Positions 33,499 through 42,600 of a stretch of DNA of 64,000 nucleotides are shown one piece after another. The stretch's first letter is position 1, and every line of letters starts with the position of its first letter. Location of the stretch: positions 671,501-735,500 of the forward strand of contig NZ_CP048878.1 in assembly GCF_011009015.1 (NCBI RefSeq), written 5' to 3'. The notes under the pieces were generated by a model. The model did not search any database. It was not told where the DNA came from and was given only the letters and a program-made list of their open reading frames with translations. The translations under genes were made by a program, and so were the position numbers. This stretch comes from Spartinivicinus ruber. Its GTDB lineage: Bacteria; Pseudomonadota; Gammaproteobacteria; Pseudomonadales; Zooshikellaceae.

Positions 33499-35332
33499 AG
33501 TGCCTGACCGAAAACTCCTTAATCCCTTCATTGACAAGGCTTACCATACGTAAACACCACCTGAAGTTTACAGCCTTATGTTTGGAGAATGCTTAAAATC
33601 AGCCATTTTTCAGTTAAAATAGGCAAAACTTCGGTGGATACAACAGTATGCGGCACGTACACAACCCTCAACTTCAGTTTGGTCAAACAGACATCTCAAC
33701 GATTCATTTTGACCCTAAATCCCGAGATGATATTCCCCAAGCGCTGAGAGGCTTGCAACACCTGTATTGTACTGATGAGCTTCGAAACCAGGTGTTTAGC
33801 ATTATTGAAGAGGAGATGGCCAGCCGGGCCAACCCAATGCTAGGGCGCCCTGGGATGGATTGGTGGAAAATACTGGTGATGGGGATACTCCGGCTGAATT
33901 TAAATTGTGATTTTGACCGTTTGCATGAACTGGTGAATCAACATCGAACCATCAGGGCCATGTTGGGTCATGGAGAGCATTGGGAAGATTTAACGCCCTA
34001 CCATATCCAAACACTCAAAGATAATGTCCCGCTGCTAACCCCGGAGATGCTAGATAAAATTAATACCCTCGTGGTTGAGTCAGGTCATGCCCTGTTAAAA
34101 AAAACACTGAAGAAAGCTTGCGGGGCCGCTGTGACTCATTTGTAGTTAAAACGACGGTCCATTACCCTACCGATATTCATTTATTATGGGATGCTTTACG
34201 AAAAGTGATATTGCTGATCAGTCGGCTATGTGAATGCTACGGGCTGAGTGATTGGCGACAATATCGGTATAATTTAAAGGCACTTAAAAGATGTTTCAGA
34301 CAAGCGCAGAAAAGCAATCAAGCGAAAGGTAAAAAATCAGCGGCAGCCAAGCAGGCTGCCTATCGGCACTATGTCACCCACGCCAAAGGGCTTATGCAAA
34401 AGGCCCAATACACCTTAGCCAAATTATCAGCATTGTCTGCGCCGGTCTGGGAGTTACGAAACATTCATCATTACCTGAGCCATGGGCAACGCCAAGCCTC
34501 TCAATGCTGGCGACGGGTGATTGAAGGAGAAGTCATCCCCCAAGATGAAAAAGTGTATTCAATTTTTCAACCACATACAGAGTGGATAAGTAAAGGTAAG
34601 GCTGGCGTGCCTGTTGAATTAGGCATCAAAGTCTGTGTACTAGAGAGCCAAGCAGGTTTTATTCTGTACCATCGCGTGATGGAAAATGAGCAAGATGTCG
34701 ACGTAGCAGTAGACATGGTGAAAGCCACAAAGGCTAAATTTCCTTTACTCCGTCAGTGTAGCTTTGATAAAGGCTTTTATTCATCGAAAAACCAATTGAA
34801 ATTGGAGAAAGAATTAGATCAGGTTGTGCTACCTAAAAAAGGGCGTTTAACAGTTAAAGAAAAAGCAGATGAAAATGAAGACCAGTTTAAAAAAGCAAGA
34901 AAACAACATTCAGCTGTAGAGTCTGCCATTAATGCCCTAGAAGTCCATGGACTTGATCGATGCCCTGACCATAGCATTCGTGGGTTTAAGCGCTATGTGT
35001 CACTGGCCGTGTTGGGACGGAATATCCAAAAGTTAGGGGTTATTCTTTACCAACAAGAAAAAGAAAAACGCTATCGCCAAGCAAAAAGTTCACGTCGAAA
35101 AGCCGCGTAATAAATATTTTGCCAATAAACAAAGCATTATCATCTAGTCATAAAGTCACTCTAGAGGGGGCAGCCTGCTTAAAATTAAGCAACTCCACCC
35201 TTTCTTGTGGATAAAAAACCCTATTTTTACTGGAAAGCTATTTTTGCTAGCAAAAATAGCTATTGTTAATAAGCATATTGTTAAACAATTTATAATCCTA
35301 AGAGCAATTTACGGCTTTTTCTGTCAGGCACT
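33499..35332 (+). mobile_element. ISNCY-type insertion sequence, 1834 bp
   Basis: The ends are AGTGCCTGACCGAAAA on the left and the inverted AGTGCCTGACAGAAAA on the right, 15 of 16 identical. A 4-bp direct repeat ATCT flanks it (33495-33498 and 35333-35336). It contains a two-frame transposase. Intact ends and a matching duplication indicate a fairly recent insertion. Confidence 0.9.
33648..35110 (+). CDS. ISNCY-type transposase in two frames
   Basis: Frame 1 (33648-34145, 165 codons) holds the N-terminal domain (GRPGMDWWKILVMGILRLNLNCDF). Frame 2, in -1 register, continues with LRGRCDSFVVKTTVHYPTDIHLLWDA and the catalytic region CSFDKGFYSSKNQ to 35110. Homologues have these joined. The junction is eight A residues at 34097-34104, in phase as A-AAA-AAA, a classical -1 slippery heptamer. 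Either programmed frameshifting makes the full protein or a one-base indel has killed it. Confidence 0.8.
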
Positions 35333-37006: not shown

Positions 37007-37028
37007 GTGGTGCATATGTATGCACCAC
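37007..37028. terminator. GTGGTGC-type stem-loop after the slipin gene
   Basis: A 22-base hairpin has arms GTGGTGCAT and ATGCACCAC (loop ATGT). On the minus strand it is followed by TGTTTTTTATC, a good intrinsic terminator for the slipin gene, and it also ends the convergent lipoprotein gene. It differs by one base from the hairpin after glk. Confidence 0.85.
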
Positions 37029-37033
37029 AGAAT

Positions 37034-38572
37034 TTATTTTAGTTTCACTAATCCATTCATTAATTGTTCCAATCCTCCATATACATTCAGTTGATCAATT
37101 CTTTCAGCTACTTTTTCCAGCGACTCCAGCTCTTTCAGGCGCAGCAACGTTGGGTTGCCTTCCATTACTTTAGCGGTGTTTTGCAAGCTACGGGTAGCAG
37201 CCGTTTCTTCGCGACGTTTGATGCTGTTAGCTTCTGCAGATTTCTGGGCATTAACCACTTGGTTGAGAATTTCCTTCATCTCACCAGGCAAGATAATGTC
37301 CTTTATTCCCAGCTGACCAAGCTCTATCCCGATAGATGATAAGTGCTGTGCAGATTGCTTTAGCAATAGCTGGTTAACCAGCTCTTTATCCATCAACAAG
37401 TCGTCCAGGTTTCGTGTGCCTATGGCTTCTCTCAAAGCTAGTTGTAAAGTACGGTAAATAAACTCATTAACATTGTTAACGTTTTCAAAAGCCATTACCG
37501 CATCTAAAATACGATAGTTGGCGTTTAGGTTAACCCGCACACTAACGCGATCTTTGGTTAATATTTCTTGCCCGCTAATTTCAGCAGTTTGCCAGCGTAG
37601 ATCAAACTGTTTTATTTCCAATTGACGACCAAATGGCCAAAAAGCATGCAAGCCTGTACTCAGGGTATTAACTAATTGACCATCTTGTAGCAGCAGACCA
37701 ATGTGCTGTTGAGCAATTGAGGTCATTAGCCATTGGCCACTTAATATCTGGCGTAAACTATCCAGTAATGACTTAGTTACACGAAAGTTGCTACTGATAT
37801 CAACCAGGTCAAGCTCCCATACTTTATTTTGCTGCCAAACAGCTACTTCGATATTAGGTGCCAACAATTGATTAAAGCGACGTTGACCATGTTGTACTTC
37901 ATACAAAAGTCCAACTTGCTGAGCTTCAGTTTTAAATAGTGCAATTTGCTCGGCTACCGCAGGAATTTCTAACCAGTTTTCCTGCAGTATATAATCAAGC
38001 TTTAACCCTTTACGGGTATCTATCATGACTACATCAATTTTACGTTGATATTGCCAAACACCAAATTCACCTTCACCTTGCAAGTCGATAAGTTGGCTAT
38101 CAACATAAATTAATGCAACAAATCCTGCGCTAACTTTATGGGTGGTTACGTTGTTGGTATTGGCATTAATAACAGTTTGCTCTTTGTTTGTTAACTGCCA
38201 CAGCAAGCTATCTTCAATGTAAAAACTATTTTCTATGTTAATGGTACGTACTTCAACATCATCTAAATCTTTCCACAAATAGTGGGTAGTAGCTGGGTTT
38301 AATAATTGCCATAGTTGACCGTGTTTATAAACTAACCCAACTTCAAAACGGCCTAATTCCAGTTTATCGAAACTTTGCAAAAATGCTGGTTCTTTCAGCC
38401 ATTGCTCTATATTACTGTCAGCAAAACATATTGATTCTGTACTAATAAGCGCTACTTCATCATATTGCCAAGCTGGCAGATAATGTACACCTGTCGGTAG
38501 AACTTTGTTTAACCTTTTATCTTTAACAATAATTAGCCGTTCATTAAGGCCAACAACCATTTTCTTAAACAC
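37034..38572 (-). CDS. Slipin-family (SPFH/band 7) protein
   Basis: 512 residues. The C-terminal half is the SPFH domain: VVGLNERLIIVKDKRL-type strands are repeated, then ILTKDRVSVRVNLNANYRI, LQLALREAIGTRNLDDLL, GIELGQLGIKDIILPGEMKEILNQV and a helical tail AQKSAEANSIKRREETAATR. An extra N-terminal region of about 270 residues holds repeated strand-rich modules, and no membrane segment is obvious. Start GTG 38572 has GGAG seven bases upstream. It is the first protein gene downstream of the tRNA-like region on the same strand, opposite rtcR. Confidence 0.85.
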   Translation of the reverse strand: MFKKMVVGLNERLIIVKDKRLNKVLPTGVHYLPAWQYDEVALISTESICFADSNIEQWLKEPAFLQSFDKLELGRFEVGLVYKHGQLWQLLNPATTHYLWKDLDDVEVRTINIENSFYIEDSLLWQLTNKEQTVINANTNNVTTHKVSAGFVALIYVDSQLIDLQGEGEFGVWQYQRKIDVVMIDTRKGLKLDYILQENWLEIPAVAEQIALFKTEAQQVGLLYEVQHGQRRFNQLLAPNIEVAVWQQNKVWELDLVDISSNFRVTKSLLDSLRQILSGQWLMTSIAQQHIGLLLQDGQLVNTLSTGLHAFWPFGRQLEIKQFDLRWQTAEISGQEILTKDRVSVRVNLNANYRILDAVMAFENVNNVNEFIYRTLQLALREAIGTRNLDDLLMDKELVNQLLLKQSAQHLSSIGIELGQLGIKDIILPGEMKEILNQVVNAQKSAEANSIKRREETAATRSLQNTAKVMEGNPTLLRLKELESLEKVAERIDQLNVYGGLEQLMNGLVKLK

Positions 38573-38615
38573 AATACATCTCCATTAAATCTAAATACCC
38601 TAAAATGCAGGGCTT

Positions 38616-38742
38616 ATTAGTCAAAGTGAAGGGGTTTTAGAGGAGGCCGTCGAGCGATGAAGCCCCATAAGCCTATAGATAATAGGTGATTGGGGTGAAG
38701 AACGACGACAACAAACTCTAAAACTCATTCACGAAGACAAAA
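38616..38742 (+). repeat. 126-bp inverted-repeat element, copy B
   Basis: Same orientation as copy A and strongly similar inside: GAAGGGGTTTTAGAGGAGGC, then CCTATAGATAATAGGTGA. Its termini have drifted from TATACC. With copy C it forms a large inverted repeat separated by about 275 bp, lying between the tRNA-like region and the slipin gene. Confidence 0.75.
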
Positions 38743-38993
38743 GAAGTTAGGGGCGGTTACTTGAGTAGTGGTGGTTAAAGAATGGTTCTCATGCATTAGT
38801 ACTTCTCGTGTGTTTTATCCACAGAATGTAACCCTGCAAGGAATGATTCAAAAACAACCTAAATAATTAAATAACATGTAACTGTTAATACAGCTTAAGT
38901 CACCTTACTAAAATTACCTTCTTTTAAGTATTTGCTTCCTGCATTCACTTTCAGTTTTGGCAAGTTTAATTTTGTTATTTAATTAAGCTAAAC

Positions 38994-39009
38994 AGCGGTA
39001 ACAACCGCT
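38994..39009. other. Short perfect hairpin
   Basis: AGCGGT and ACCGCT arms with loop AACA, immediately before copy C of the repeat. It would be transcribed as a compact hairpin in the leader of the slipin transcript. Role unknown. Confidence 0.4.
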
Positions 39010-39018
39010 AACCTTTTT

Positions 39019-39144
39019 TATACCTTTTGCGAATCGCTTTTAGGTTTTGTTATCATCGTGACTCACCCCAATCACCTATTATCTATAGGCTCATGGGACT
39101 CATCACTTGATGGCCTCCTCTAAAAACCCTTCGCTTTAGGTATA
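39019..39144 (-). repeat. 126-bp inverted-repeat element, copy C
   Basis: Exactly the length of copy A. The ends are TATACCTTTTGCGAA and the inverted TATACCTAAAGCGAA, which gives the clearest terminal repeat of the family. Its orientation is opposite to copies A and B. Confidence 0.8.
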
Positions 39145-39152
39145 TTTTACGG

Positions 39153-39172
39153 AAGACTACTTTCGTAGTCTT
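39153..39172 (-). terminator. GAAA-tetraloop hairpin downstream of the tRNA-like gene
   Basis: The stem is AAGACTAC and GTAGTCTT. Read on the minus strand the loop is GAAA, a stable GNRA tetraloop. It begins 12 bases after the tRNA-like gene and could be its 3' end or a processing barrier. No T-run follows on the minus strand, whereas on the plus strand TTTTACATTT follows. Confidence 0.55.
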
Positions 39173-39183
39173 TTACATTTATA

Positions 39184-39256
39184 TAGCTTGAGAAGGATTT
39201 GAACCTTCTACCCATTGCTCCCTAAGCAACTGCTCTACCAAATGAGCTATCAAGCA
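39184..39256 (-). tRNA. tRNA-like gene, anticodon AGG (Pro-type), no CCA
   Basis: The 73-nt sequence folds as a full cloverleaf. D stem GCTC/GAGC, loop ATTTGGTA, anticodon stem GTTGC/GCAAT with loop TTAGGGA, T stem GAAGG/CCTTC with loop TTCAAAT, and acceptor 6 of 7 pairs (first pair T-T mismatched). U33 and G37 are kept. Anticodon AGG would read CCU. A34 is very rare in bacterial proline tRNAs, CCA is not encoded and the 1-72 pair is broken, so a decoy, sensor or decayed tRNA is as likely as a translating one. Confidence 0.6.
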
Positions 39257-39277
39257 CTGGTTTTAAGCCAGTATTAA

Positions 39278-39328
39278 TGGTGGTTTTTTGGGACTCGAAC
39301 CCGGTTGTATGCCATATCATAAAAAACC
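39278..39328 (-). ncRNA. 51-nt mini-tRNA-like module
   Basis: The 5' strand GGTTTTTT pairs with AAAAAACC, followed by ACCA. Before it lies a T-arm-like CCGGGTTCGAGTCCC, matching the T arm of tRNA-Asp-type genes. Normal D and anticodon arms are absent, with only 16 bases between acceptor and T arm. The lower T stem has two C-A mismatches. It is either a deleted tRNA or a deliberate acceptor/T-arm mimic as in Y RNAs. Confidence 0.5.
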
Positions 39329-39348
39329 AATAAGATTCTTACGAATCT

Positions 39349-39365
39349 ATGCCGTGACAGGGCAC
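39349..39365 (-). other. Anticodon-arm-like hairpin, GUC loop
   Basis: GTGCC-CTGTCAC-GGCAT makes a five-pair stem with a seven-base loop. The loop CTGTCAC is identical to that of E. coli tRNA-Asp (anticodon GUC). It lies directly next to an AGATTC/GAATCT hairpin (39333-39348). No complete tRNA surrounds it. Confidence 0.5.
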
Positions 39366-39480
39366 TGTGTCTTGGATGCTTTGGTACAACTTACTTGAAA
39401 CAAGAGTTGCCAGGCTGGCTTTGGTGTTAAGCAAACAACCAGGCCTGCTAAAGCATTCCGTTTTGCACAGTATTCATATA

Positions 39481-39496
39481 GCGATTAGTGTGCCAA
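39481..39496 (-). promoter_or_regulatory. Sigma-54 (-24/-12) promoter facing the tRNA-like region
   Basis: On the minus strand TTGGCACACTAATCGC matches TTGGCAC-N5-TTGC with one mismatch (C for T). GG and GC have the required 10-base spacing. Transcription would start near 39469 and enter the tRNA-like region. RtcR, encoded divergently at 40993, is a sigma-54 activator, making it the obvious candidate regulator. Confidence 0.65.
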
Positions 39497-39949
39497 CTTT
39501 TTTAGTTTCTACTTTAATATGGCTGTAGGTCTTGATAGGTAAGGGTTACACAAGGTTTGTAGAGGTTGGTGGGCTATAGATTTATTAAATGAACTTTTTA
39601 AATTTATTATCAATATAAATAATATATTATCAATATAGATAGAAATAAAATTTTCTTGCACTTGGCTTAGGCTAAACTAATGTAAGGTAGTTGTAAGAAA
39701 GTTTTGGTGGATTAGAGCTTTCACAGGTTCTCTATTGGTGTAACCTTTAGAATAATATTGACATGGTTGTTATCTGATGATGAAGGAAAATTGGAGTTTA
39801 GTTGGTTCTCAAGAGATAACTACTATTGAAATTGTGAAGGGTTTAGGTGAGAGGAGCCTGACTGATATTTGAAACGTATAATGGGGTGCATTATCAGCAA
39901 ATATAGAAACTGCAGAGCAGTTTAATACAGTTGAAATTTAGGTTTTTTG
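39497..39949. other. AT-rich intergenic region upstream of promoter and binding protein
   Basis: About 450 bp. It would contain the upstream activator sites for the sigma-54 promoter on one strand and the promoter of the solute-binding-like gene on the other. Repeats of ATTATCAATATA occur near 39608-39641. No credible gene: the longest frame has about 31 codons. Confidence 0.4.
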
Positions 39950-40732
39950 ATGAAAAAACTGGCTATATATGGTTTAAATTTATTACTTAGCTTAAGCTTT
40001 TCTATCAACTGCATGGCAGTAGAGTCGATCAACTTAGCTAATGGAGAGTGGCCCCCTTACCATTCCAAGAAACTAAAATATTATGGGTTTGTTTCACGCA
40101 TTATAACTGAAGCTTTTGCTTTAAAGAGTATTAAGGTTAACTATAAGTTTCTTCCTTGGAAACGAGGTATGATATTAGCACAACGGGGCGATTTGGATGG
40201 GACTGCTGTGTGGCGTTATAAAGACAAATTTGCAAAGGACTTTTATTACAGTGATTCAGTTTTAGGAACTAATACGGTTTTTTTTCACTTGAAAAATTTC
40301 CCTTTTAAATGGAATAGTTTTGATGATCTTAAAGGTATGAGAATAGGGGGAACAATTGGTTATGGGTATAATGAAGAGTACGATAAGGCAGAGCAAAGCC
40401 AAGAGTTCATTATTCATCGGGTTCCTAGAGATGAACAAAATTTTGCTAAATTATTAGCTGGGCGAATTGATATTTTTCCCATTACTACTGAAGTTGGTTA
40501 TTATATTTTACAAACAAAATTCAGACTGAAAGATCAGCAACTAATTACCCATCATACTCAAAGTCTCACCCCGTCTAAGGAGAGAAACCTGCACCTCTTA
40601 TTATCGAAGAAAATCGAGAAAAATAAACAAGTGTTGATATTATTCAACCTAGGGTTGGAACAGTTGAAACAAAGTGGGAAATTGAGGCAATACCATGAAG
40701 AACTCTACCAAGGTAAGTATCAGAACAATTAA
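39950..40732 (+). CDS. Family-3 solute-binding-like periplasmic protein
   Basis: 260 residues. Signal peptide MKKLAIYGLNLLLSLSFSI with cleavage near CMA. The mature part starts SINLANGEWPPYHSKKLKYYGFVSRIITEAF, continues LPWKRGMILAQRGDLDGTAV and has the hinge MRIGGTIGYGYNEEY. It is a clear paralogue of the protein at 62468 (shared NGEW-P, PWKR, GTIGY-like motifs). TTTAGG lies before the ATG. No transport genes are adjacent, and it sits between rtcR and its presumed target. Confidence 0.75.
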   Translation: MKKLAIYGLNLLLSLSFSINCMAVESINLANGEWPPYHSKKLKYYGFVSRIITEAFALKSIKVNYKFLPWKRGMILAQRGDLDGTAVWRYKDKFAKDFYYSDSVLGTNTVFFHLKNFPFKWNSFDDLKGMRIGGTIGYGYNEEYDKAEQSQEFIIHRVPRDEQNFAKLLAGRIDIFPITTEVGYYILQTKFRLKDQQLITHHTQSLTPSKERNLHLLLSKKIEKNKQVLILFNLGLEQLKQSGKLRQYHEELYQGKYQNN

Positions 40733-40992
40733 TAAGTTGTTAAGGACAATATTGAACCAAAAGGTTTGAGTTTTTCAAAATAAAATTTGTTGTCTTTTAT
40801 TGGTGTTGTCTGCCGGTCAAGTTCAGTCTGGGTTTTCTTGTAGCTTCAAAGTTTGAAAAAATGCTTGGGTTGGTTTGCTGATATAGCAGAAATTGCCATT
40901 GCTTTTTGGAAAAGTGGGGGATATACATTATTGATCTAAATGGATTACTATGAATCTATATAGATTTTATATGGCAATGCTGGAGATGGTGA

Positions 40993-42600
40993 ATGGAAAA
41001 GACCAAGGTTGTGATTGGTTTGTTGGGTACATCGAAAGATCGTCGTGGTAAAGGAGCGAAGCGCTGGAATAGTTGGCGGCCAACGGTGAGTATTTTTCAG
41101 CAAAAGGATTTTGAGCTGGATCGTTTAGAGTTGCTGCATCAGCCAAGGGATAAGAACTTGGCTACCAAGGTATGTGAGGATGTGCAGGAGGTGTCTAGCC
41201 ATACGGCCTATAATTTATACCCTGTCCGTTTTATTGACCCTTGGGATTTTGAAGAAGTTTACAGTGTGCTGTTAGAGTTTTGTCAGTCTTATCCATTTAA
41301 GCCAGAAAAGGAAGACTACTATCTGCATATTACTACCGGCACCCATGTGGCGCAGATTTGCTGGTTTTTACTGTGTGAGGCAAACTATATACCGGCTCGT
41401 TTGCTACAGTCGTCACCAGGTGTAAGAGACGAAGAAGGCAATGCCATTGGTACTTATTCTGTTATTGATTTGGATTTATCCAAGTATGATGCTTTAGCTC
41501 AGCGTTTTCAAAAAGAAGCCTTAGATGACCAGTCTTTTCTAAAAAGCGGTATTCAAACTAAAAATAAAGCCTTTAACCAAATGATCGAACAGATCGAAAA
41601 AGTAGCGGTTCGCAGTACGGCACCTATGCTCATTACTGGGCCGACCGGCGCAGGTAAATCGATGCTGGCGAAACGGATTTATCAGCTTAAACAGCAAAAA
41701 GGTCTAGTTGCTGGTGCCTTTATTGCGGTTAATTGTGCGACCTTAAAAGGTGATAATGCTATGTCTGCCTTATTTGGTCATATTAAAGGGGCTTTTACCG
41801 GGGCGCAAAGTAAGCGAGATGGTTTATTGTTGGCGGCAAATCAGGGGTTGTTATTCCTTGATGAAATTGGTGAGCTAGGGGTAGATGAGCAAGCTATGTT
41901 ATTACACGCCATAGAAGAAAAAACGTTTTATCCTTTGGGCAGTGATAAACCAGTGCAAAGTGACTTTCAGTTAATCGCCGGTACTAATAAAGACTTATAT
42001 CAGGCAGTTGAACAAGGTTTATTTCGTGATGACTTATTAGCACGCATTAATTTATGGACCTATCAACTACCAGGACTGGCTCAGCGTAAAGAAGATATTG
42101 AGCCTAACCTGAATTACGAATTACAAGAGTATGAAAGAAAAACAGCCCATAAAGCTAGTTTTAATCAGCCAGCCAAACAGAAATATTTATCTTTCGCAAC
42201 TTCTCCGCAAGCCAGTTGGCGTGGTAATTTTCGTGATTTAAATGCCAGTGTTGAACGGATGCTGACTTTGGCGGAAGGGGGAAGGATTAATGAAGAAATT
42301 GTTTGTCATGAAATTGAGCGGCTTTCACACCATTGGCAAATCAACCAATCTGCTACTAAAAATGCAAGGGCTGATTTAACTAAATACTTTGATGAAGATC
42401 AATTAGAAGTCATGGATTTATTTGATCAACTGCAATTGCAGCAAGTAATTGCTATTTGCCAGCAACAGTCGTCAATATCAGCTGCAGGACGCGAGCTGTT
42501 TAACTATTCTCGGACACAAAAAGCATCGAGTAATGACAGTCATCGCTTGCGAGTGTATTTATCAAAATTTGGTTTAAGCTTTAATCAGTTCAAATCATAG
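40993..42600 (+). CDS. rtcR: RtcR, sigma-54 activator of RNA repair
   Basis: 535 residues, against about 532 in E. coli. Residues 1-180 are the RtcR CARF-like sensor (VVIGLLGTSKDRRGKG, YYLHITTGTHVAQICWFLL). The AAA+ domain has Walker A GPTGAGKS, the sigma-54 contact loop GAFTGAQ, Walker B LLFLDEIGEL and the C-terminal helices. RtcR normally senses RNA ends and activates rtcBA from a divergent sigma-54 promoter. Here the divergent target appears to be the tRNA-like region plus slipin. GGAG precedes the ATG. Confidence 0.93.
   Translation: MEKTKVVIGLLGTSKDRRGKGAKRWNSWRPTVSIFQQKDFELDRLELLHQPRDKNLATKVCEDVQEVSSHTAYNLYPVRFIDPWDFEEVYSVLLEFCQSYPFKPEKEDYYLHITTGTHVAQICWFLLCEANYIPARLLQSSPGVRDEEGNAIGTYSVIDLDLSKYDALAQRFQKEALDDQSFLKSGIQTKNKAFNQMIEQIEKVAVRSTAPMLITGPTGAGKSMLAKRIYQLKQQKGLVAGAFIAVNCATLKGDNAMSALFGHIKGAFTGAQSKRDGLLLAANQGLLFLDEIGELGVDEQAMLLHAIEEKTFYPLGSDKPVQSDFQLIAGTNKDLYQAVEQGLFRDDLLARINLWTYQLPGLAQRKEDIEPNLNYELQEYERKTAHKASFNQPAKQKYLSFATSPQASWRGNFRDLNASVERMLTLAEGGRINEEIVCHEIERLSHHWQINQSATKNARADLTKYFDEDQLEVMDLFDQLQLQQVIAICQQQSSISAAGRELFNYSRTQKASSNDSHRLRVYLSKFGLSFNQFKS

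What the first reader, a model, noticed from the sequence alone, without database searches (positions are those of the whole stretch)
37034..42600. Candidate RtcR/sigma-54 locus: tRNA-like RNA plus slipin instead of rtcBA
Seen: rtcR on the plus strand; opposite it a near-consensus sigma-54 promoter (39481-39496, minus) pointing into about 300 bp of tRNA-like structures and then a slipin gene on the same strand, ending at a strong terminator. Known: RtcR is a sigma-54 activator that normally drives divergent rtcBA and responds to damaged RNA ends, and in Salmonella the rtc operon includes tRNA-mimicking Y RNAs. Inference: here RtcR controls a tRNA-like RNA and a membrane-scaffold protein, an RNA-damage response module without its ligase beside it.
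Basis: partly seen in the sequence, partly recalled or inferred. Interest (0 to 1): 0.9.

Follow-up and report, generated by a model that had tools for sequence, protein, structure and literature searches.

The report
tRNA-mimic RNA paired with slipin
Next to a bacterial sensor of broken tRNAs lies a stretch for a structured RNA that imitates a tRNA and travels with a slipin protein gene in many bacteria, which suggests an unstudied RNA-protein partner of the RNA repair response.

Summary
rtcR (40993-42600 +) faces a sigma-54-like site (39480-39496 -) that points into about 300 nt of structured RNA, then slipin (37034-38572 -) and a terminator. One unit scores as a tRNA in Rfam; the first "tRNA-like" stretch is a different conserved domain (39369-39461).

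It is not local. Of 80 relatives of this slipin (proteobacteria, cyanobacteria), 73 have a tRNA-like unit just upstream on the same strand, 64 a divergent rtcR, 66 rtcB; 0 of 19 ordinary Band_7 loci have a tRNA. The pairing survives both operon orders and absence of rtcR, so the RNA belongs with slipin. The units look non-decoding: odd anticodons in 38 of 79 versus 0 of 58 other tRNAs of the same loci.

Corrections: rtcB lies elsewhere (two copies), rtcA and Ro60 are absent, and the slipin shows no membrane hairpin.

Best reading: a damage-induced tRNA-mimic RNA acting with a soluble slipin, working like Ro60-Y RNA. Transcription, binding and the decoy role are inferred. In the window and ten relatives Rfam 15 finds only tRNA; the papers seen do not describe it, but Burroughs and Aravind 2016 could not be read.

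The parts
40993..42600 (+). rtcR: RtcR (CARF-like) domain plus sigma-54 activator AAA+ domain
   Evidence: Pfam PF06956 E 4e-78, PF00158 E 5.8e-50; GAFTGA visible in the translation
39480..39496 (-). sigma-54 promoter-like site TTGGCACACTAATCGCT
   Evidence: 1 mismatch to consensus; core kept in G001 and G002; sites scoring 10-11 of 11 in 34 of 64 relatives on the expected strand versus 0 of 64 on the other strand
39369..39461 (-). conserved 5' RNA domain (outer helix, AGCAGG, hairpin, CCTGGC..GTACC helix)
   Evidence: covariance model R2, built without this sequence, finds it at 41.2 bits, E 2.7e-11 in 1.43 Mb; covariation of the family
39276..39328 (-). T-arm plus acceptor-like minihelix stretch (CCGGGTTCGAGTCCC between GGTTTTTT and AAAAAACC)
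   Evidence: sequence; 94-96% identical in two congeners; folding not better than shuffles
39184..39256 (-). tRNA-like cloverleaf, anticodon AGG, first acceptor pair T.T, no encoded CCA
   Evidence: ARAGORN, Rfam tRNA 60.2 bits, R1 73 bits (this sequence was in R1's training set)
38573..39183 (-). rest of the leader up to slipin, interrupted by two dispersed repeats
   Evidence: 82-83% identity to two congeners outside indels
37034..38572 (-). slipin: N-terminal beta repeats, SPFH domain, C-terminal helices; no hydrophobic segment
   Evidence: Band_7 E 2.4e-31; AlphaFold2 mean pLDDT 84; hydropathy
37007..37028 (-). intrinsic terminator-like hairpin with T tract
38617..38741 (+). dispersed repeat copy 1 (not part of the module)
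   Evidence: inverted repeat; 43 matches in the genome; absent from G001 and G002 at this place
39026..39137 (-). dispersed repeat copy 2 (not part of the module)
   Evidence: present in G001, absent from G002 at this place
39947..40732 (+). solute-binding-protein-like ORF between rtcR and the promoter, in this genome but not in the two congeners
   Evidence: PF00497 E 3e-4, below its cut-off; absent from G001 and G002

Best explanation
The locus is a stress-inducible RNA-plus-protein unit. Broken tRNA ends activate RtcR, which opens the divergent sigma-54 promoter (inferred from published RtcR biology). The transcript carries a conserved structured non-coding RNA (a 5' domain followed by a tRNA mimic, in a number of relatives extended by a further domain) and then slipin. 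The RNA is the partner of slipin rather than of the regulator: it imitates the arms of a tRNA but is free in its anticodon, and most likely works as a decoy or docking scaffold for tRNA-cutting or tRNA-repair proteins, held by an oligomer of the soluble slipin, much as Y RNA serves Ro60 in the Salmonella version of the operon. Shown here: the parts, their conservation and linkage, the RNA folds, the non-decoding features of the family. Inferred: transcription, RtcR control, RNA-slipin binding, the decoy or scaffold role.
For: 73 of 80 slipin relatives have a tRNA-like unit on the same strand upstream (59 by ARAGORN, none on the opposite strand in the same interval; 14 more by model R1); 0 of 19 ordinary Band_7 loci have a tRNA. 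Divergent rtcR in 64 of 80, rtcB in 66 of 80; in 145 related genomes rtcR is in 12, this slipin in 11, both in 8 (Fisher p 2e-8). Pairing kept in 20 of 20 loci with rtcB first and 16 of 16 without a divergent rtcR in the locus held. A second RNA domain upstream of the tRNA unit covaries (0.73 versus 0.23 in shuffles) and a model of it finds the window. The RNA block is 92% identical in two congeners versus 67-68% at slipin third codon positions. Non-decoding features: odd anticodons 38 of 79 versus 0 of 58 other tRNAs, U33 in 27 of 46 seven-base loops, 22 of 68 aligned loops not seven bases, CCA in 16 of 68, first acceptor pair unpaired in 27 of 68; Gilliamella orthologues largely keep the body and change the anticodon loop. 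RtcR binds 5' tRNA halves ending in cyclic phosphate (PMC7790460, passages). In Anabaena a slipin gene, rtcB and a tRNA operon are repressed by TrcR (PMC10272220, passages).
Against: No expression, binding or mutant data. Seven of 80 loci have no tRNA-like unit by either search, and 25 of 80 no 5' domain at E up to 0.01, Gilliamella and the E. coli locus among those without. In the window the unit has U33 and a seven-base loop, so it is less deviant than many. rtcR occurs without this slipin in 4 of 12 genomes and slipin without rtcR in 3 of 11. Some relatives carry sets of ordinary-looking tRNAs in the same locus, which points to tRNA supply. A cis-acting leader would also sit directly upstream of slipin. 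ARAGORN selects cloverleaves, so covariation in the tRNA unit is partly by construction. Loci are related, so counts are not independent events.
Confidence: 0.55

Rival explanations
1. The tRNA unit is a cis-acting part of the slipin messenger: a processing site (RNase P/RNase Z) or a structured leader that couples slipin translation to tRNA damage; there is no free RNA partner.
For: Same strand and directly upstream of slipin in either operon order; in several relatives the 3' arm of a long-range helix ends not far before the slipin start (examples picked by eye), e.g. GAGGCCCAT/GTGGGCCTC in L085, GAGGCTCAT/GTGAGCCTC in L113, GAGGTTCAT/GTGAACCTC in L123.
Against: A processing signal alone would not need a second conserved domain or tandem tRNA units of different anticodon; CCA and the first acceptor pair are often not kept.
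Confidence: 0.25
2. Spare functional tRNAs that replace those cut by anticodon nucleases, as with inducible tRNA operons.
For: Relatives such as L073, L075, L076 and L113 carry many ordinary-looking tRNA genes in the locus; the Anabaena trn operon is induced by translation stress and shares its repressor with rtcB and a slipin gene.
Against: The slipin-proximal units have odd anticodons in 38 of 79 (0 of 58 in other tRNAs of the loci), aligned loops of other than seven bases in 22 of 68, U33 in only 27 of 46, and Leu/Ser calls under 80 nt in 13 of 14 (but also 4 of 7 among the other tRNAs).
Confidence: 0.12
3. A bacterial Y RNA of the Salmonella kind.
For: A tRNA-mimicking RNA in an RtcR-controlled operon (PMC7790460, passages).
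Against: No TROVE protein found in this genome and in only 1 of the 35 slipin genomes tested; no Rfam family but tRNA reaches its gathering score in the window or ten related loci.
Confidence: 0.05
4. A decayed tRNA or integration remnant with no function.
For: The leader contains dispersed repeats and the locus an inserted ORF.
Against: 92% identity of the RNA block against 67-68% at third codon positions and 42-48% upstream; detection across phyla.
Confidence: 0.02

Closest known systems
Salmonella rsr-yrlBA-rtcBA RNA repair operon (Ro60 homologue, Y RNAs, RtcB, RtcA under RtcR and sigma-54)
   Same: RtcR with a divergent sigma-54 promoter; a tRNA-mimicking RNA beside an RNA-binding or ring-forming protein (that Ro60 is a ring and SPFH proteins form rings or domes is partly recalled, partly from the abstract of PMC12624060); rtcB in the locus of 66 of 80 relatives
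   Different: slipin instead of Ro60; no TROVE protein found in the genome; the RNA precedes the protein gene, has a full cloverleaf and a different 5' domain; in the window rtcB is elsewhere and rtcA was not found
Classical rtcR-rtcBA (E. coli K-12 type)
   Same: RtcR family, sigma-54 promoter
   Different: the divergent unit here starts with RNA and slipin; no rtcBA beside rtcR
Anabaena TrcR regulon (trn tRNA operon, rtcB, alr0739-alr0740 with a slipin)
   Same: slipin, rtcB and tRNA genes under one regulator linked to translation stress (PMC10272220, passages)
   Different: RHH repressor instead of RtcR; the passages read describe an operon of 26 tRNA genes and do not mention a tRNA-like unit upstream of slipin
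RtcR-linked CoCoNuT restriction systems
   Same: RtcR homologues placed with defence genes (PMC11090510, passages)
   Different: no slipin, Band-7 or SPFH is mentioned in the main text searched
Stomatin/slipin (SPFH) proteins
   Same: SPFH domain, E 7e-29 to archaeal stomatin by profile
   Different: no N-terminal hydrophobic hairpin in the window protein; tandem N-terminal beta repeats

Membership tests
RtcR regulators | RtcR (CARF-like) N-terminal domain | tested here: met
   PF06956 E 4e-78, positions 1-183 of 183
RtcR regulators | sigma-54 activator AAA+ domain | tested here: met
   PF00158 E 5.8e-50
Classical rtc RNA repair operon | rtcB (and rtcA) divergent from rtcR | tested here: not met
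   slipin is divergent; rtcB at two other places; no rtcA match in the genome or in four close relatives
Ro60-Y RNA operon (rsr-yrlBA type) | TROVE/Ro60 protein encoded | tested here: not met
   no PF05731 match in the genome
Ro60-Y RNA operon (rsr-yrlBA type) | RNA with a tRNA-like domain downstream of the sigma-54 promoter | tested here: met
   by sequence; transcription itself not testable here
Functional tRNA | cloverleaf with T-loop and D-loop consensus | tested here: met
Functional tRNA | decoding features (anticodon repertoire, seven-base loop, U33) across the family | tested here: not met
   the window's own unit has U33 and seven bases, but anticodon AGG and a T.T first pair
Functional tRNA | aminoacylation | not testable with these tools
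   needs biochemistry
Slipin/stomatin | SPFH domain | tested here: met
Slipin/stomatin | N-terminal membrane hairpin | tested here: not met
   best 19-residue hydropathy 1.16 in the window protein; 4 of 80 relatives exceed 1.6
Major vault protein | SPFH-like shoulder | tested here: inconclusive
   whole model matches MVP at E 6e-12 over 608 columns but TM 0.39; Pfam MVP_shoulder only E 0.023, below cut-off, in one relative of the eight proteins scanned
Major vault protein | N-terminal MVP repeats | tested here: not met
   N-terminal part (285 aa) modelled alone: MVP E 0.31, probability 0.09

The most novel reading that the evidence does not exclude
The soluble slipin forms a closed SPFH cage around or upon the tRNA-mimic RNA: a bacterial, vault-like ribonucleoprotein induced by tRNA damage, in which the RNA's freely varying anticodon loops bait anticodon nucleases and the cage delivers the fragments to RtcB. 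Vault and Ro60-Y RNA particles would then be two solutions to the same RNA-repair need.
Probability: 0.1. Interest if true: 0.93.

Novelty: new variant of a known kind. Interest (0 to 1): 0.72.

Why it matters
RtcR responds to broken tRNAs, yet what its operons do beyond ligation is open. A conserved tRNA-mimic RNA that travels with a slipin through proteobacteria and cyanobacteria, with no match to an Rfam family of its own in the loci searched, gives a concrete RNA-protein pair to test and a Ro60-independent counterpart to Y RNA. It also raises the question how RtcR is activated in genomes without rtcA, where RtcA is reported to be needed in Salmonella. The upstream region of an E. coli slipin of this family, with a sigma-54-like site and a T-arm-like stretch, is in 1624 of 5426 complete E. 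coli genomes, so the question can be taken to a common laboratory species.

Tried and rejected
Folding energy of the whole leader looked extreme but goes with two inverted dispersed repeats; dropped as evidence. A first promoter script had the wrong spacing and was redone. A regex for the 5' domain found 14 of 80 loci and was replaced by the covariance model. For that model 47 of 73 loci had the GTACC-like motif; I used 31 and left out 16 by hand as short, truncated or unlike the rest, and drew the structure from these same rows, choosing the better of two pairings for one helix. Model R2 in 145 genomes gave 7 genomes; 5 are at slipin loci, 2 (L161, L162) lie inside long ORFs and are taken as false; of the 11 slipin genomes that search missed six, five of which (this genus, G011, G086) have R2 matches when their loci are searched directly and one (G123) has none. 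The duplex test between leader ends favoured own pairs (-48.3 versus -39.5 kcal/mol; 0 of 10,000 permutations) but base composition was not controlled and the own partner ranked first in only 6 of 62, so it is only suggestive. The vault idea was tested with the N-terminal part alone and not supported. R2 found nothing in six Gilliamella loci or the E. coli locus. In one search the row L132 was mis-set (contig end) and ignored. Regions L163 and L164 were fetched but not analysed. No slipin match in the phage collection; nine plasmid records have one at E up to 1e-30, of which only the one was opened. A weak leader match in one plasmid record was not followed up.
Full report
1. What is in the window. 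The rtcR gene is at 40993-42600 on the plus strand and has both the RtcR domain (E 4e-78) and the sigma-54 activator domain (E 5.8e-50). On the minus strand a sigma-54-like site, TTGGCACACTAATCGCT, lies at 39496-39480; with one mismatch it is the best such site listed in the 64 kb, although sites with up to two mismatches are not commoner than chance (33 found, 42 expected). Downstream come a unit that ARAGORN calls tRNA-Pro(AGG) and Rfam scores at 60 bits (39256-39184), then slipin (38572-37034, Band_7 E 2.4e-31) and a terminator-like hairpin (37028-37007).

2. Congeners. Two genomes of the same genus (G001, G002) carry the same order. The aligned block from promoter to the end of the tRNA unit is 92% identical to each, against 67-68% at slipin third codon positions and 42-48% just upstream of the promoter. 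The ORF between rtcR and the promoter (39947-40732) is absent from both, and the two long inverted repeats of the leader are copies of a dispersed repeat with 43 matches in the genome, so neither is taken as part of the module.

3. Elsewhere in the genome. rtcB occurs twice, away from rtcR; one copy is followed by a gene that looks like prfH (translation; the name is recalled). No rtcA match was found in this genome or in the four nearest relatives tested and no TROVE protein in this genome. Published work says RtcA is required for operon expression in Salmonella (PMC7790460, passages) and RtcAB for RtcR-dependent activation in E. coli (PMC9650030, start of abstract), so RtcR must be activated differently here; this is inference.

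4. Relatives. ARAGORN found a tRNA on the slipin strand within 1 kb upstream in 59 of 80 and none on the other strand of that interval. A covariance model, R1, built from 68 tRNA-like units found units in 14 of the other 21, so 73 of 80; 62 of the 73 are non-redundant at the cut used. The seven without are L054, L060, L061, L063, L065, L074 and L109; L063 does have the 5' domain described below. Nineteen ordinary Band_7 loci (2.4-3.7 kb each) gave no tRNA. A divergent rtcR is in 64 of 80, rtcB in 66, rtcA in 33. Counts are of loci, not independent events, and contig ends cut some loci.

5. The RNA goes with slipin. Where slipin comes first after rtcR, 37 of 44 loci have the unit; where rtcB comes first, 20 of 20; where no divergent rtcR is in the locus held, 16 of 16, including three cyanobacteria (L070, L107, L112; titles). 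In 145 related genomes RtcR occurs in 12 and this slipin in 11, with 8 in common, 4 RtcR genomes without it and 3 slipin genomes without RtcR (Fisher p 2e-8).

6. The tRNA unit is probably not for decoding. Of 79 slipin-proximal units 38 have an odd anticodon (a stop anticodon, A34 other than ACG, or not three bases) against 0 of 58 other tRNAs in the same loci. In the alignment of 68 units (67 from relatives plus the window), 22 anticodon loops are not seven bases long as aligned, U33 is present in 27 of 46 seven-base loops, CCA is encoded in 16 of 68; Leu/Ser calls are under 80 nt in 13 of 14, though also in 4 of 7 of the other tRNAs. The first acceptor pair is unpaired in 27 of 68. That these features matter for decoding is recalled textbook knowledge. 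In Gilliamella, seven distinct orthologues largely keep the body and change the anticodon loop, down to five bases; the module is in 7 of 35 genomes of that genus. L073, L075, L076 and L113 also hold arrays of ordinary-looking tRNAs, which keeps a supply role open for those arrays.

7. A larger RNA. Upstream of the tRNA unit lies a second conserved domain with four helices (A5, 31 sequences: 91% of cells paired, covariation 0.73 against 0.23 in shuffles and at most 0.13 with slid partners). Rows for A5 were picked by a short GTACC-like motif found in 47 of 73 loci; 16 of the 47 were left out by hand, and the structure was drawn from the rows themselves, so the controls flatter it. The model R2 then found the window, which was not in its training set, at 39461-39369 (E 2.7e-11), 9 of 10 loci of the related genomes (none in training; L041 missed) and 55 of 80 of the species set at E up to 0.01 (31 of them in training). 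Further downstream some relatives have a second T-arm hairpin and a long-range helix whose arms change together, for example GAGGCCCAT/GTGGGCCTC, GAGGCTCAT/GTGAGCCTC, GAGGTTCAT/GTGAACCTC and GGAGCCCAT/GTGGGCTCC in L085, L113, L123 and L102 (picked by eye); this was not shown for the window. Rfam 15 at gathering scores gives only tRNA for the window and ten related loci; at E up to 5, L113 and the window add four hits below their gathering scores (the best an antisense-strand match over the tRNA unit, E 0.0045). The other loci of the species set were not run against Rfam.

8. Promoter in relatives. Between rtcR and the first divergent gene, 34 of 64 loci have a sigma-54 site with 10 or 11 of 11 consensus positions on the expected strand, against 0 of 64 on the other strand; 19 of 64 score 8 or less, so it is not universal by this consensus.

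9. The protein. The window slipin has no hydrophobic stretch (best 19-residue mean 1.16; 4 of 80 relatives exceed 1.6). AlphaFold2 gives N-terminal beta repeats, an SPFH domain and helices (mean pLDDT 84). Foldseek finds stomatin (E 8.7e-15) and, over 608 columns, major vault protein (E 6e-12, TM 0.39). The N-terminal part alone does not find vault protein convincingly (E 0.31), so the vault likeness rests on the SPFH domain and a general layout.

10. E. coli. A slipin of this family sits between rluF and lysC, with TGGCACGCTTCTCGCA and a T-arm-like stretch upstream, read by eye. The upstream region is in 1624 of 5426 complete genomes; in K-12 MG1655 no gene is annotated between yjbD and lysC. 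R1 sees only a T-arm fragment there (E 0.067) and R2 nothing.

11. Literature. Full-text searches combining RtcR, RtcB, slipin, Band-7, tRNA-like, RNA repair, vault and tRNA gene terms turned up two papers that link slipin with rtcB and tRNA genes, both by expression in Anabaena: PMC10272220 (passages) and PMC9938897 (one passage; its authors warn that an antibiotic may explain the effect). Passages of six papers in all were read (also PMC7790460, PMC9879122, PMC11090510, PMC9650030); the other listed papers were seen as listings only. None of the passages describes a tRNA-mimic RNA upstream of slipin. Burroughs and Aravind 2016 is not held, so a prior note there cannot be excluded.

12. Mechanism. 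I commit to a damage-induced tRNA mimic that works with slipin as a decoy or scaffold (0.55 for the composite), with a cis-acting leader as the main rival (0.25) and spare tRNAs as the next (0.12). Shown: parts, linkage, conservation, folds. Inferred: transcription, RtcR dependence, binding and function.

Noticed in passing
window 38617-38741 and 39026-39137: Two inverted copies of a dispersed, self-complementary repeat (MITE or REP-like) with 43 matches in the genome; insertion state differs among congeners.
   Followed up: partly
window 39947-40732: A solute-binding-protein-like ORF lies between rtcR and its presumed promoter here but not in two congeners, so that the promoter is about 1.5 kb from rtcR.
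   Followed up: partly
L073, L075, L076, L113, L038, L042: Arrays of ordinary-looking tRNA genes inside the rtcB/slipin locus, in some of many different amino acids; Leu/Ser members outside the proximal unit are under 80 nt in 4 of 7.
   Followed up: partly
L004 7406-9177: A second, divergent rtcB followed by a release-factor-like gene resembling prfH, far from rtcR.
   Followed up: no
L165 6259-6572: In E. coli a slipin plus nucleotidyltransferase pair sits near lysC behind a near-consensus sigma-54 site and a T-arm-like stretch; the upstream region is in 1624 of 5426 complete genomes.
   Followed up: partly
L046-L125: A nucleotidyltransferase-like gene is found in 34 of 80 slipin loci, often downstream of rtcA, rtcB or slipin.
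   Followed up: no
G000 to G004: RtcR is present in five related genomes with no detectable rtcA, although RtcA is reported to be needed for operon expression in Salmonella.
   Followed up: partly
window 33648-35110: Two overlapping ORFs that look by eye like a split insertion-sequence transposase; the second had no Pfam match.
   Followed up: no
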